Positions 57,103-60,965 of a DNA stretch of 60,965 nucleotides are shown here, one piece after another. A program made the translations under genes and the position numbers. This stretch comes from Gammaproteobacteria bacterium (GTDB taxonomy: Bacteria; Pseudomonadota; Gammaproteobacteria; DRLM01). Where the stretch lies: NCBI GenBank assembly GCA_023266095.1, contig JAHFRV010000014.1, forward strand, positions 1-60,965, written 5' to 3'. The notes below the pieces were generated by a model. The model saw only the letters and a program-made list of their open reading frames with translations, had not been told where the DNA came from and did not search any database. Each line of letters opens with the position of its first letter. Positions within the stretch are counted from its first letter, which is position 1.

Positions 57103-58356
57103 TTACTGCGCCACCATCCATATCCGCGAATGCGGCACGCCCTCGGTGACCGCGATCGTGTCCAGCACCGTGTCTTCGCCGCCGTCCAGCACCACCAGCG
57201 CGCCGCTCTCGGGATCGGAGGAAAACACCAAACGGGTACGGCGGCCTACGCTGTGAAACGCCACCGAGCTGGACGACCCGACCTTGACCTCTTTGATCAG
57301 CTTGAGTTTGGGCAGCGCGGTCATGTCCAGCACCAGCAACACGTCGGTCTTGAGGTGTTGCAACTGCTCGGGACTGCCGGAGCTGGCGGTCGTGAAATAG
57401 AGCTTGCTGCCTTCCGGGTTGAAAAAATATTTGCTGAGATAGACGTCGCGCAGGTCGAGCGTGTCGACCAGGGTTTTACTCACCACATCGAGCACCGCGA
57501 ATTTACCGATGACATGTTCGGGATCGGACTTGCGGTCGGCGCCGCGGGCGATCAAATAACGCGGGTCCGGCGAGGCGATCAGATTGCTATAGCCTTTGCA
57601 GGCGATCCGCTCTTCGATGCGGTTGGACACGGCATCGATCACCGCGATGCTGCCGTAGCCGTTGTTGAGGTTGTAGATCTTGCCGGTGAGCGGCGAATAG
57701 GCCAACCCATGGGGGAAGGATTTATTGGGCACGCTGGTCTCGGCGCCCTCTTCTTTGTCCGGCTCGCACAAATCGATGGTGGTGATCACCTGTAAATAAT
57801 TGGCGGCGTCCAACGGATCGTTGCCGATCACCGAGATCGTGCCGTCGTTGAGACTGCTGATGTAGGCTCGGCGCGGCACCTGCGGCCTTTCCGGCGACGG
57901 GTAACTGAAGGCGGCCTGATGGTGGCCGCGACCCACGCAGATGGTCTTGAGAAAATACGCCTCTACGCTACCGGCGTTTTCGATGACGGTGACCGACGAA
58001 CCTTGGTCACCGCAATTGAGCGTATCGTTGCCGGTCGCTTTATCGCCGTCGTTCATGAACCAATCGCGGTCGGAATGCGGATCGCTGTAAATATGGGCGG
58101 GAAAGGCGTCGGCGGGAAAGGCGGCCTGCACCCGCAACTGCTTGCTCTGGGGATCGAGCAATATCACCTGCAGATCCTCACTCACGCCCGCCAGCATCGG
58201 TTTCAGGGCCGGCTCCAAGGCGCTTTCCGGTTGCACGGCCAAGGGCTGCACACTCACCCGTCCCGCGACGCAGCGCACCACCTTGATGGAACCGGTCTTA
58301 CGGTTGCCAGAATAATAGGCCACGGAAAAGTCAGCGTTGTCGAAGGTCTTGGTCAT
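57103..58356 (-). CDS. YncE-like beta-propeller protein
   Basis: A 417-residue protein of repeated beta-strand units: PRRAYISSLNDGTISVIGND, FPHGLAYSPLTGKIYNLNNG, YGSIAVIDAVSNRIEERIAC, KTDVLLVLDMTALPKLKLIK, SGALVVLDGGEDTVLDTIAV. This is the YVTN/lactonase-like seven-bladed propeller pattern. No signal peptide is seen (start MTKTFDNADFSVAYYSG), which is unusual for YncE relatives. ATG 58356 has GAGAG upstream and is preferred over 58368. The ligand is unknown. Confidence 0.8.
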   Translation of the reverse strand: MTKTFDNADFSVAYYSGNRKTGSIKVVRCVAGRVSVQPLAVQPESALEPALKPMLAGVSEDLQVILLDPQSKQLRVQAAFPADAFPAHIYSDPHSDRDWFMNDGDKATGNDTLNCGDQGSSVTVIENAGSVEAYFLKTICVGRGHHQAAFSYPSPERPQVPRRAYISSLNDGTISVIGNDPLDAANYLQVITTIDLCEPDKEEGAETSVPNKSFPHGLAYSPLTGKIYNLNNGYGSIAVIDAVSNRIEERIACKGYSNLIASPDPRYLIARGADRKSDPEHVIGKFAVLDVVSKTLVDTLDLRDVYLSKYFFNPEGSKLYFTTASSGSPEQLQHLKTDVLLVLDMTALPKLKLIKEVKVGSSSSVAFHSVGRRTRLVFSSDPESGALVVLDGGEDTVLDTIAVTEGVPHSRIWMVAQ

Positions 58357-58575
58357 AACGTCTCTCACTTTGAATTATTTGCTATCGCCGTATTATCGCG
58401 GCCGCGTTGGGCGGGAGCAATGCCGATCCGTCACACCGTCACACTCGGCGCCCATCTTTAACGGCCCACGCCGCACGCGTCCTACCTCCCCGTCTCTCCT
58501 CTTCGCAGGGTATCATAGCGCGCCGCCGGATCCCCGTCGGCGCATCCGCCTTATCCGCATAGCCGAGAACACGAC

Positions 58576-59760
58576 ATGAGCATAATCAGCCAACCTTCCA
58601 GCCCGCGCTCCAGCGTGGCCTATGTGGCCGCGCCCGAAACCCCGTCCGCCGAGGCACAAAACCTGGCATCGCAACAAGGCTGGGGCGAGGCGGTATTGTT
58701 ACGGCGGCGCGGCACGGCGCTGGCTTGGGTGGCGGAACGGCAGCGTCCCGTGATGCCCGACGTGGACAGCCTGCGCCAGGCCTGGCAAGCGGCGCAACCG
58801 ATGCTACTGCCCGATTTCGCGCCGGCGGAAGTACAGGCGCAGAGCGCTCACATCCGGCAGTCGCTGACGCTGGTGGAGGCGATACTGGACGGGGCCGAAG
58901 TGGCGGCATATTTCGAACAGTCGCCTTACGTCGAAAGACTCACACCCGGCTTCGAGATGCTGGCCGCCTTCGAGGACGAGGGCGACCCGCAAGAGATCGA
59001 GACTCTCGAATTCGACGCCGTGCAAGGTGATGAAGTCATCGCGGAGAATCTATGGGTGAAGGCCTCATGGCTGTCTTTCGAGGACGATGACGCCTCCTTG
59101 CGCTTTCGTTTTTCCTTCGGCCTCGTGGGCTACGAAGACGTGGCGGCCGACCCGGCCCGGCAACACTACGCCGCCGCCCTCACCGAGGCTTTGTTTCCCG
59201 AATCCGCGGTGATCAGCGCCAACTCCCGCCTTGCCGTCTTGTTGCAAACGGCCTTAGGCGTGGCGGGTTTGAATTATGTGGAGCGCATCGTTTATTTCAA
59301 CGCACCCAACGGCGGCGCGCAATTCCATCAAGACGTGGAGCGCGGCCACCTCGGCGTGGTGTTCGCCCAGGCTCACGGCGGCACCGGCTGGCTGACCTTG
59401 CCCAAACAAATCTTGATGAACGAGATTCAGGCGTTCGCCGCCGGCCCCGCGGGCGCGGCCGCCCTGGCCGAACTGCTGCTGCAAGCCAAACTCAGAAAAG
59501 AAGTATTGAACATCATAGGTGAGCGCGAGTCCCTGGCGCAAACCCTTGACGCAGGCGATCACGACGCGCTGGAAGCCCTGCTCAACCGCTGCCCCGCCTT
59601 CACCCGCCAACTGGTCGAACACGGTCATTGTTATTTATTGCGGCCGGGCGATCTGATTCTGCTACCGCAACACGACGCCGAACACTGCGCCTGGCACACG
59701 GTGTTTTGCCTGGATGAGTTCCTGGGCGAGGCATTGTCGTTCGCGGTGCGGGCGGCCTGA
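58576..59760 (+). CDS. JmjC/cupin-like protein of unknown function
   Basis: A 394-residue protein. The middle (about 230-380) shows a possible Fe(II)/2OG double-stranded beta-helix: H251 and D253 in GAQFHQDVERGHLG, K277 in WLTLPKQ, and H374 in EHCAWHTVF after LLRPGDLILLPQHDAEH. The insert between strands (280-345) is helical. The N-terminal 200 residues are acidic and have no recognised domain. It might hydroxylate a protein, but neither target nor activity is shown. No close family is recalled. Confidence 0.72.
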   Translation: MSIISQPSSPRSSVAYVAAPETPSAEAQNLASQQGWGEAVLLRRRGTALAWVAERQRPVMPDVDSLRQAWQAAQPMLLPDFAPAEVQAQSAHIRQSLTLVEAILDGAEVAAYFEQSPYVERLTPGFEMLAAFEDEGDPQEIETLEFDAVQGDEVIAENLWVKASWLSFEDDDASLRFRFSFGLVGYEDVAADPARQHYAAALTEALFPESAVISANSRLAVLLQTALGVAGLNYVERIVYFNAPNGGAQFHQDVERGHLGVVFAQAHGGTGWLTLPKQILMNEIQAFAAGPAGAAALAELLLQAKLRKEVLNIIGERESLAQTLDAGDHDALEALLNRCPAFTRQLVEHGHCYLLRPGDLILLPQHDAEHCAWHTVFCLDEFLGEALSFAVRAA

Positions 59761-59776
59761 GAACGAGCTTAGCCGC

Positions 59777-60216
59777 ATGCCAGTACGTCCTCCCGAGTAC
59801 GACCGGGTAGTGGAAGCGTTAGTGGCCGTGTTTAAGGAGTTGCCAGGCAAGCTCACGCCATCGACGGGCGCGACGGATCAGGTAAGACAACGCTTGGGCG
59901 TTTCCTTGCTTGGTACTTCAACGTCACTCTCGTCGAGACTGATCTATTCATACTTGACGAAAGTGGACCGACCTATCGGTTGGAAGAAATCAATCGCATC
60001 ATTGCTGCGCGTGTTGCGAAGCACCGGCCGGTTATCGTTGAAGGCGTTACTGTCACGCGTCTGCTGGCCCAACTCGGCCGCAATCCCGACTTCTTAATCT
60101 ACGTACGAAATTCAGAGTTCACTGGTAGCGAGACGCTCTCTGGAATGCTGAATAGTTACGAGGAAACACACGCACCAGAAAAGCGGGCCAATCTGATATT
60201 AGAGCTTGCACATTGA
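59777..60216 (+). pseudogene. frameshifted P-loop kinase-like gene
   Basis: Two frames join into one protein. The first starts at ATG 59777 (MPVRPPEYDRVVEALVAVFK). A single-base shift between about 59836 and 59857 is needed to continue in the next frame, which holds the Walker A IDGRDGSGKTTLGRFLAWYF, then VTLVETDLFILDESGPTYRL, VIVEGVTVTRLLAQLG, and ends at 60216. The layout resembles uridine-kinase-like or adenylate-kinase-like small P-loop enzymes. It is either a decayed gene or a sequencing error. Confidence 0.72.
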
Positions 60217-60254
60217 AGGCGACTAACCATGCCTTGCACCAGCATTTAAATGTG

Positions 60255-60372
60255 GGTGGGTTAGCCCGCAAGGGCGTAACCCACCAAACCGTTGCGTAGC
60301 GACTCCTCTATAAAATTTTTTCAAAGGGCGCCTGACGACGCGAGTGGGTGGGTTACCCTGCGCTAACACACC
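60255..60372. repeat. second copy of the bipartite hairpin repeat
   Basis: The left hairpin is GGTGGGTTA-GCCC-GCAA-GGGC-G-TAACCCACC (60255-60285). A linker CAAACCGTTGCGTAGCGACTC and an AT-rich spacer lead to GCGCCTGACGACGCG (60328) and a right hairpin GGTGGGTTA/TAACACACC (60347-60372). Order and linkers match the outer parts of the array at 24966-25245, which has a larger insert in the middle. Confidence 0.85.
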
Positions 60373-60429
60373 CTACATCGCTTGTTGGTGGTTTGGTGGG
60401 GCCGAGCATCGCACCCGCCAACGCCGGCG

Positions 60430-60615
60430 TTACGTCGCTTCGGTCTTGGTGATGCCGCAACGCGCGCAGCGGTAGGCGGTCACCAGCTTGCCCTGCTTCA
60501 CATCGAAGCGGCGCTCACTGAGCACTTCCCATTTATGAAAATTGCTGCGACATAAACCGCGGTTCTTGAACTTCTCGGAGGGAGTGGCTTTCTTGAACTG
60601 AAGTACTTCGCCCAT
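60430..60615 (-). CDS. small zinc-ribbon-like protein
   Basis: A 61-residue basic protein, MGEVLQFKKATPSEKFKNRG, with one cysteine and histidine in LCRSNFHKWEV and a CxxC in YRCARCGITK that may form a zinc site. VLSERRFDVKQGKLVTAYRC gives a beta hairpin. Homologues recur as hypothetical proteins in gammaproteobacteria as far as I recall. Function unknown. Confidence 0.75.
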   Translation of the reverse strand: MGEVLQFKKATPSEKFKNRGLCRSNFHKWEVLSERRFDVKQGKLVTAYRCARCGITKTEAT

Positions 60616-60935
60616 GGTTTAACCTCTTGGCCGTGGACTGGCCGTCCACCGCGGTTCGTGAACATGATAGTACTCTATTCGCCCGACGGCATGGGAGCCG
60701 TAACAAGCTCATCGCCCGGGAAATTTTTTTGGCGTTTCACCGGGATCGTAAAATCCGGGCTGACCAGGAAATAAATCGTAAGCTTAAGCCCTATCCCAGG
60801 AATAACCCATCAAACTCAATGTGTCGCGGGAAGCTCCGAATAAATCAGATGATATGGACACCGCCCTCCTATAACCGGCATCAAGGTGCCATAGTTGTAG
60901 GTGAAGCCATCAACTCAACCAGGAGGACGGTGTCC
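60616..60935. other. non-coding left end of an IS110-family element
   Basis: This region upstream of the transposase start contains no gene. It turns AT-richer after about 60720. The right part has a 17-bp inverted repeat, ATGGACACCGCCCTCCT (60854-60870) and its complement at 60921-60937, with one mismatch. The exact left boundary of the element is not visible, as IS110 elements lack classical terminal repeats. In IS110-group elements this region encodes the bridge RNA (family knowledge). Confidence 0.55.
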
Positions 60936-60937
60936 AT
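60854..60937 (+). promoter_or_regulatory. hairpin masking the transposase ribosome site
   Basis: In a transcript reading through, arms 60854-60870 and 60921-60937 pair at 16 of 17 positions around a 50-base loop. The right arm includes the Shine-Dalgarno AGGAGG (60921-60926) and the first bases of the ATG. Translation from external promoters would thus be blocked, a known way for insertion sequences to limit impinging expression. Confidence 0.65.
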
Positions 60938-60965
60938 GAAGAAGATTAGCGTAATCGGTCTGGAT
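60936..60965 (+). CDS. IS110-family transposase, N-terminal fragment
   Basis: Only ten codons are in the window: MKKISVIGLD. This matches the beginning of IS110 recombinases, where the Asp of GLD is the first acidic residue of the RuvC-like DEDD site. AGGAGG is placed 9 bases ahead. The rest lies beyond the right edge. Confidence 0.7.
   Translation, partial: MKKISVIGLD

What the first reader, a model, noticed from the sequence alone, without database searches (positions are those of the whole stretch)
60720..60965. IS110 left end: candidate bridge-RNA locus
The window ends ten codons into an IS110-type recombinase. Elements of this family use a structured RNA from the non-coding end, upstream of the gene in the IS110 group, to choose target and donor DNA. 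The gene-free, AT-richer stretch from about 60720 to 60935 is where such an RNA would lie. In the IS1111 group it would instead lie at the far end, outside this window.
Basis: partly seen in the sequence, partly recalled or inferred. Interest (0 to 1): 0.6.

Follow-up and report, generated by a model that had tools for sequence, protein, structure and literature searches.

The report
Left end of an IS1111 element
The window stops just inside a common kind of jumping gene whose guide RNA lies at its other end, so the stretch flagged here is half host DNA and half a short leader that probably folds to hide the gene's translation start.

Summary
The last ten codons of the window (60936-60965) do start a DEDD (IS110-family) recombinase gene, and the contig ends there. 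The bridge-RNA reading does not hold. The element begins at about 60847; 60720-60846 is host DNA ending in half of a multi-copy palindrome. The 89-nt left end carries a 13-bp subterminal inverted repeat (60854-60866). Its partner, with target DNA, ends three other contigs of this genome and closes a 79-bp deleted copy on a fourth. In 23 relatives both ends were read: short left end, transposase, then 240-395 bp holding a covarying RNA whose guides match each element's own flanks. A model of that RNA finds nothing in the window but matches this genome's right ends, cut by the contig edge. The left leader does fold strongly (60853-60938, -40 kcal/mol, z -6), pairing the terminal repeat with the Shine-Dalgarno and AUG; this pairing covaries across 31 relatives, so it is probably a translation brake. 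The element is a new member of a known kind; the shared leader is mildly novel.

The parts
60720..60819 (.). Host intergenic DNA included in the finding; not part of the element
   Evidence: No similarity to any copy of the element in own genome or 94 relatives; fold of 60720-60852 is no better than shuffles
60820..60849 (+). Left half of the target: one arm and loop of a multi-copy palindrome, TGTGTCGCGGGAAGCTCCGAATAAATCAGA (its last three bases can be assigned to host or element)
   Evidence: 35 sites in own genome with at most 3 mismatches, none for the reversed control pattern; intact sites read ..GGAACCTCTGAATAAATCAGAGGTTCCTTAA
60847..60853 (+). 7-bp left terminal extension AGATGAT; start of the IS1111-type element
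   Evidence: 7 bp left and 3 bp right extensions are the published IS1111 rule (PMC11187229); same register in the own C42 copy and in relatives
60854..60866 (+). Left subterminal inverted repeat ATGGACACCGCCC
   Evidence: Perfect partner GGGCGGTGTCCAT at the right ends on own contigs C42, C66, C71, C89
60853..60938 (+). Leader RNA hairpin: outer stem 60853-60870 / 60921-60938, inner hairpins 60877-60890 and 60893-60915; pairs the Shine-Dalgarno and the AUG
   Evidence: -40.3 kcal/mol, z -5.99, 0 of 200 shuffles as good; arms covary over 31 left ends, 0 of 50,000 permutations
60921..60926 (+). Shine-Dalgarno AGGAGG of the transposase gene, inside the 3' arm of the hairpin
   Evidence: Sequence; pairs with 60865-60870 in the predicted fold
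60936..60965 (+). First ten codons of the IS1111-type DEDD transposase (MKKISVIGLD...), cut by the contig end
   Evidence: similar starts in relatives

Best explanation
The window ends inside the left end of an IS1111-group element inserted in one copy of a genome-wide palindromic repeat. Target and donor choice is made by an RNA coded downstream of the transposase, at the right end, outside this window; the left end supplies donor DNA (7-bp extension plus inverted repeat) and the transposase leader. In the excised circle the joined ends form a promoter reading through leader, transposase and RNA. The leader folds so that the inverted-repeat arm pairs with the Shine-Dalgarno and AUG, keeping transposase translation low. 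Shown by sequence: boundary, inverted repeats, target, right-end RNA in relatives and its 3' part in this genome, guide matches in relatives, leader fold and its covariation. Inferred: that the unassembled middle holds an intact gene and guides, that the junction promoter works, and that the hairpin lowers translation.
For: Boundaries and inverted repeats: own C42 holds a 79-bp deleted copy with both ends, AGATGAT-ATGGACACCGCCCTCC..GGGCGGTGTCCAT-GTA, followed by AGAGGTTCCC. The same right end closes contigs C66, C71 and C89, each followed by AGAGGTTCC. Two left ends and four right ends fall at the same point of the palindrome; intact palindromes are abundant. Layout: in 23 relatives where both ends were read, the left repeat is about 70-95 bp before the gene and the right repeat closes a 240-395 bp downstream region. 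The downstream RNA has 14 of 23 consensus pairs with changes on both sides. Its model hits at 57-101 bits downstream of the gene in elements not used to build it (L048, L051, L057, L059, L060) and not in the window. Guides: the RNA repeats the last 5 nt of each element's left host flank, 93 of 105 positions against 31 when shuffled and a maximum of 54 in 5000 shuffles; it is complementary to the right flank, 72 of 126 against 40, maximum 57. Junction promoter: 9.25 of 12 mean consensus matches against 7.3 at the inserted left end; for this element TTGGCA-17-TAAGAT. Leader. Named IS1111 members IS4321 and IS5075 are 40% identical to the transposase of an intact relative, L025.
Against: The middle of this copy is not assembled, so gene integrity and the guide segments of this very element were not seen. 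The pairing of this left end with the C66/C71/C89 right ends rests on the identical repeat, the C42 copy and the common target, not on a continuous sequence. A donor-guide match to the 7-bp extension was weak in relatives (94 of 147, 34 of 5000 shuffles as good). The leader would still fold, though less strongly, if transcription began at the expected junction-promoter start, so it does not cleanly separate read-through from self-made transcripts. A few relatives (L041, L053) lack a good leader hairpin. Shuffling arms does not fully remove shared ancestry.
Confidence: 0.92

Rival explanations
1. One reading: an IS110-group element with its bridge RNA upstream of the gene in 60720-60935.
For: DEDD recombinase start at the window end; the left 89 nt are strongly structured; seekRNAs are 70-100 nt (PMC11187229), so length alone does not exclude it.
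Against: The element begins at about 60847. A 13-bp subterminal repeat is present, which the IS110 group lacks. The RNA model gives no hit. What is conserved in the hairpin is its pairing with the Shine-Dalgarno, not loops that match targets. In relatives the guides lie in the right-end RNA.
Confidence: 0.03
2. The leader hairpin acts at the DNA level (recombinase binding or end recognition by a third copy of the inverted repeat) rather than as an mRNA translation brake.
For: The Shine-Dalgarno arm is an imperfect inverted copy of the terminal repeat, and the repeats work as DNA at the ends. Gene-less hairpin copies with both arms exist in a relative (L021, G003:C27:11811).
Against: The copy sits on the Shine-Dalgarno next to the start codon in most of the 31 aligned leaders, and inner hairpins are kept, as expected of an RNA. 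A 5'-UTR that hides the ribosome site has been shown for ISPpu9 (PMC8450116).
Confidence: 0.25
3. The left end is an inert remnant or deletion derivative (as on C42) and not part of a full element.
For: C42 is such a derivative, and gene-less or broken copies occur in relatives.
Against: The reading frame is open to the contig end with an intact Shine-Dalgarno. The contig breaks inside the element, and three right ends break at the same place, as expected of a multi-copy repeat collapsed in assembly.
Confidence: 0.15

Closest known systems
IS1111 group of IS110-family elements (IS1111, IS4321, IS5075, ISEc11, ISPa11, ISKpn4)
   Same: 11-13 bp subterminal inverted repeats with 7-bp left and 3-bp right extensions, downstream non-coding region with a guide RNA, junction promoter in the circle, insertion at a fixed point of a specific target, in some members a repeated palindrome (PMC11187229, PMC11208160)
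   Different: Different target: a palindromic MITE-like repeat of this lineage. The full transposase of this copy was not seen.
ISPpu9 of Pseudomonas putida
   Same: Inserts in repeated extragenic palindromes; 5'-UTR structure that hides the ribosome site; orphan copies of the downstream RNA also occur in its genome (PMC8450116)
   Different: ISPpu9 has a long 5'-UTR with an antisense RNA (Asr9) and is described as IS110/IS492 without clear terminal repeats. Here the leader is 86 nt and its 5' arm is the terminal repeat itself. No promoter-like site was found on either strand of 60600-60965.
IS621 and the IS110 group
   Same: DEDD recombinase, guide-RNA logic, target in repeated palindromes
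   Different: The IS110 group has a long left end holding the bridge RNA and only 2-3 bp repeats (PMC11208160); the layout here is the reverse.

Membership tests
IS1111 group | Subterminal inverted repeats of 11-13 bp, perfect or nearly so | tested here: met
   ATGGACACCGCCC (60854-60866) and GGGCGGTGTCCAT on own C42, C66, C71, C89
IS1111 group | Terminal extensions of 7 bp (left) and 3 bp (right) outside the repeats | tested here: met
   AGATGAT and GTA fit the palindrome junctions in all occupied sites, with an AGA overlap that leaves the exact cut open by up to three bases
IS1111 group | Long non-coding region with guide RNA downstream of the transposase, short left end | tested here: met
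   Left end 89 nt; relatives have 240-395 nt downstream with a covarying RNA; in this genome only its last 60 model positions are assembled (27 bits)
IS1111 group | Guide segments matching both strands of the target, top-strand complement first | tested here: inconclusive
   Met in 21 relatives. For this very element the guide segments lie in the unassembled part and could not be read.
IS1111 group | DEDD transposase that groups with IS1111 over its full length | tested here: inconclusive
   Only ten codons of this copy; an intact relative (L025) is 40% identical to IS4321/IS5075 transposases over 98% of its length. No tree was built.
IS110 group | Long left end carrying the bridge RNA; no or very short inverted repeats | tested here: not met
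   Left end 89 nt with a 13-bp repeat; RNA model best score 2.1 bits in window 60000-60965; no Rfam match above its gathering score

The most novel reading that the evidence does not exclude
IS1111-group elements share an undescribed left-end leader: the terminal inverted repeat is mirrored a third time over the transposase's Shine-Dalgarno and start codon, giving a branched RNA hairpin that co-evolves with the DNA end and throttles transposase translation, so that changing the end changes the brake.
Probability: 0.5. Interest if true: 0.45.

Novelty: new member of a known kind. Interest (0 to 1): 0.25.

Why it matters
It settles where the guide RNA of this element lies (at the other end) and gives its target site, so the guide segments can be predicted before the missing piece is sequenced. 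The leader pairing, conserved across distant IS1111 elements, suggests a simple built-in brake on transposase synthesis that anyone using native IS1111 ends with seekRNA or bridge-RNA systems would want to know about.

Tried and rejected
Rfam scan of 58000-60965: two sub-threshold chance matches. DNA search of plasmids: no match. Exact-pattern scans of the 84,980-species collection and of 369 genomes of the class for the left end: nothing besides the window. The idea that the 30-bp repeat at 60820-60849 belongs to the IS was rejected: it is the end of a separate multi-copy palindromic element, also intact and in other genera. RNAalifold on the left-end alignment recovered only the inner hairpin, because the sequence aligner did not put the Shine-Dalgarno arms in register; the arms were therefore tested by duplex energies with shuffled partners. 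A promoter and terminator scan of 60600-60965 found nothing on either strand. Literature searches found no description of the leader hairpin in IS1111 elements, but most subscription papers are not held.

Full report
What is in the sequence. The window is the complete contig C11 of the genome. Its last 30 bases are ATG AAG AAG ATT AGC GTA ATC GGT CTG GAT (MKKISVIGLD), the usual start of a DEDD (IS110-family) recombinase, with AGGAGG nine bases upstream. The stretch 60720-60935 has no convincing gene and is less GC-rich than the window (0.481 against 0.603).

Where the element begins. Comparing the end of the window with the rest of the genome shows a boundary just before 60853. On contig C42 there is a short copy in which the first 32 bases of the left end are followed by a right end..GGGAAGCTCTGAATAATC-AGATGAT-ATGGACACCGCCCTCCTATAACCGG..AAACGGGCGGTGTCCAT-GTA-AGAGGTTCCC. 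The same right end closes contigs C66, C71 and C89, all breaking about 92 bases inside it, each followed by AGAGGTTCC. This is what an assembler does with a multi-copy element. The element therefore has a 13-bp subterminal inverted repeat, ATGGACACCGCCC / GGGCGGTGTCCAT, with extensions of 7 bp on the left and 3 bp on the right, and starts at about 60847. An AGA shared by element and target leaves the exact cut uncertain by up to three bases.

The target. The bases before the element, TGTGTCGCGGGAAGCTCCGAATAAATCAGA (60820-60849), are half of a palindrome that occurs at 35 places in this genome (the window's included) with at most three mismatches, and at none for the reversed control pattern. 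Intact places read ..GGAACCTCTGAATAAATCAGAGGTTCCTTAA. They form one end of a MITE-like repeat of roughly 165-190 bp, also present in two genomes of the same genus and in a few other genera. All six element ends seen (two left, four right) lie at the same point of this palindrome.

Relatives. A class-wide search with the transposase of an intact relative (L025, 341 aa) gave 30 loci. In 23 of them both repeats could be read: the left one about 70-95 bp before the gene, the right one closing a downstream non-coding region of 240-395 bp. The left extension (TAATGG-like or TGATG-like) and the right extension (ATA, ACA, AGA) follow the published IS1111 rule of 7 and 3 bp (PMC11187229). Named IS1111 members IS4321 and IS5075 are 40% identical to that transposase.

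The guide RNA. The downstream regions align into one RNA of about 140 nt with a consensus fold in which 14 of 23 pairs have changes on both sides. A covariance model built from 22 of them finds the RNA downstream of the gene in elements not used to build it (57-101 bits for L048, L051, L057, L059, L060) and, cut by the contig edge, in the right ends of this genome (about 27 bits over the last 60 positions). It finds nothing in window 60000-60965 with all filters off (best 2.1 bits). In 21 relatives the RNA repeats the last five bases of the element's own left host flank at 93 of 105 positions (31 on average with shuffled partners, at most 54 in 5000 shuffles). An earlier segment is complementary to the right flank at 72 of 126 positions (40 on average, at most 57; the register was chosen as the best). 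Top-strand complement before bottom-strand match is the order reported for IS1111 seekRNAs (PMC11187229). Thus target choice by this family is coded at the right end. For the element in the window the guide segments are in the unassembled part; they should read like ..ATAAATC and GGAACCTCT.

The left leader. The 89 nt between the element's start and the ATG are not a bridge RNA, but they do fold: 60853-60870 pairs with 60921-60938, enclosing two small hairpins; -40.3 kcal/mol, z -5.99, 0 of 200 shuffles as good. The 5' arm is the inverted repeat; the 3' arm holds the Shine-Dalgarno and AUG. In 31 left ends the own arms pair at -19.4 kcal/mol on average against -14.1 for arms of different elements, and no permutation in 50,000 reaches the observed sum; the same holds for 15 elements with distinct repeats. 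Shared ancestry is not fully excluded. The likely role is to hide the ribosome site, as shown by experiment for the different 5'-UTR of ISPpu9 (PMC8450116). Joined ends in the circle would make a promoter (TTGGCA-17-TAAGAT here; mean 9.25 of 12 matches in relatives against 7.3 at inserted ends). A transcript starting there would still fold, less strongly, so the leader would act as a general brake rather than only against read-through.

Verdict. This is the left end of an IS1111-group insertion sequence: ordinary as a kind, new as a copy. The flagged coordinates mix host DNA with a short leader, and the guide RNA lies outside the window. I did not find the leader pairing described for IS1111 elements, but the library held is incomplete.

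Noticed in passing
L121 (G000:C64:29603-29743) and L122 (G000:C56:7224-7361): Full-length right-end guide RNAs (121 and 116 bits) with a right inverted repeat nearby but no intact transposase next to them; reminiscent of the orphan ssr9 copies of ISPpu9.
   Followed up: partly
L021 1501-1592 (G003:C27:11811) and L015 1501-1587 (G003:C142:9370): Gene-less copies of the left leader in a related genus; the one on C27 is a near-perfect palindrome that includes the 7-bp extension on both sides, as if the leader hairpin moved or was copied alone.
   Followed up: no
window 60820-60849; L091, L096, L104 and other loci: MITE-like repeat of about 165-190 bp with TTAAGGAACCTCTGA-like ends, made of successive hairpins, at 35 sites in this genome and also in other genera; it is the target of the IS.
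   Followed up: partly
G000:C42:3776-3854 (L012): 79-bp deletion derivative of the same IS carrying only the two ends, inserted at the same target point.
   Followed up: yes
L009 (G000:C66) and L010 (G000:C26): Two other, different IS1111-type elements in the genome, one with an in-frame TAA and one with a broken frame.
   Followed up: no
window 60430-60615, minus strand: Small ORF of 61 aa with a CxxC motif (RCARCG) and an RBS-like stretch upstream, next to the element.
   Followed up: no
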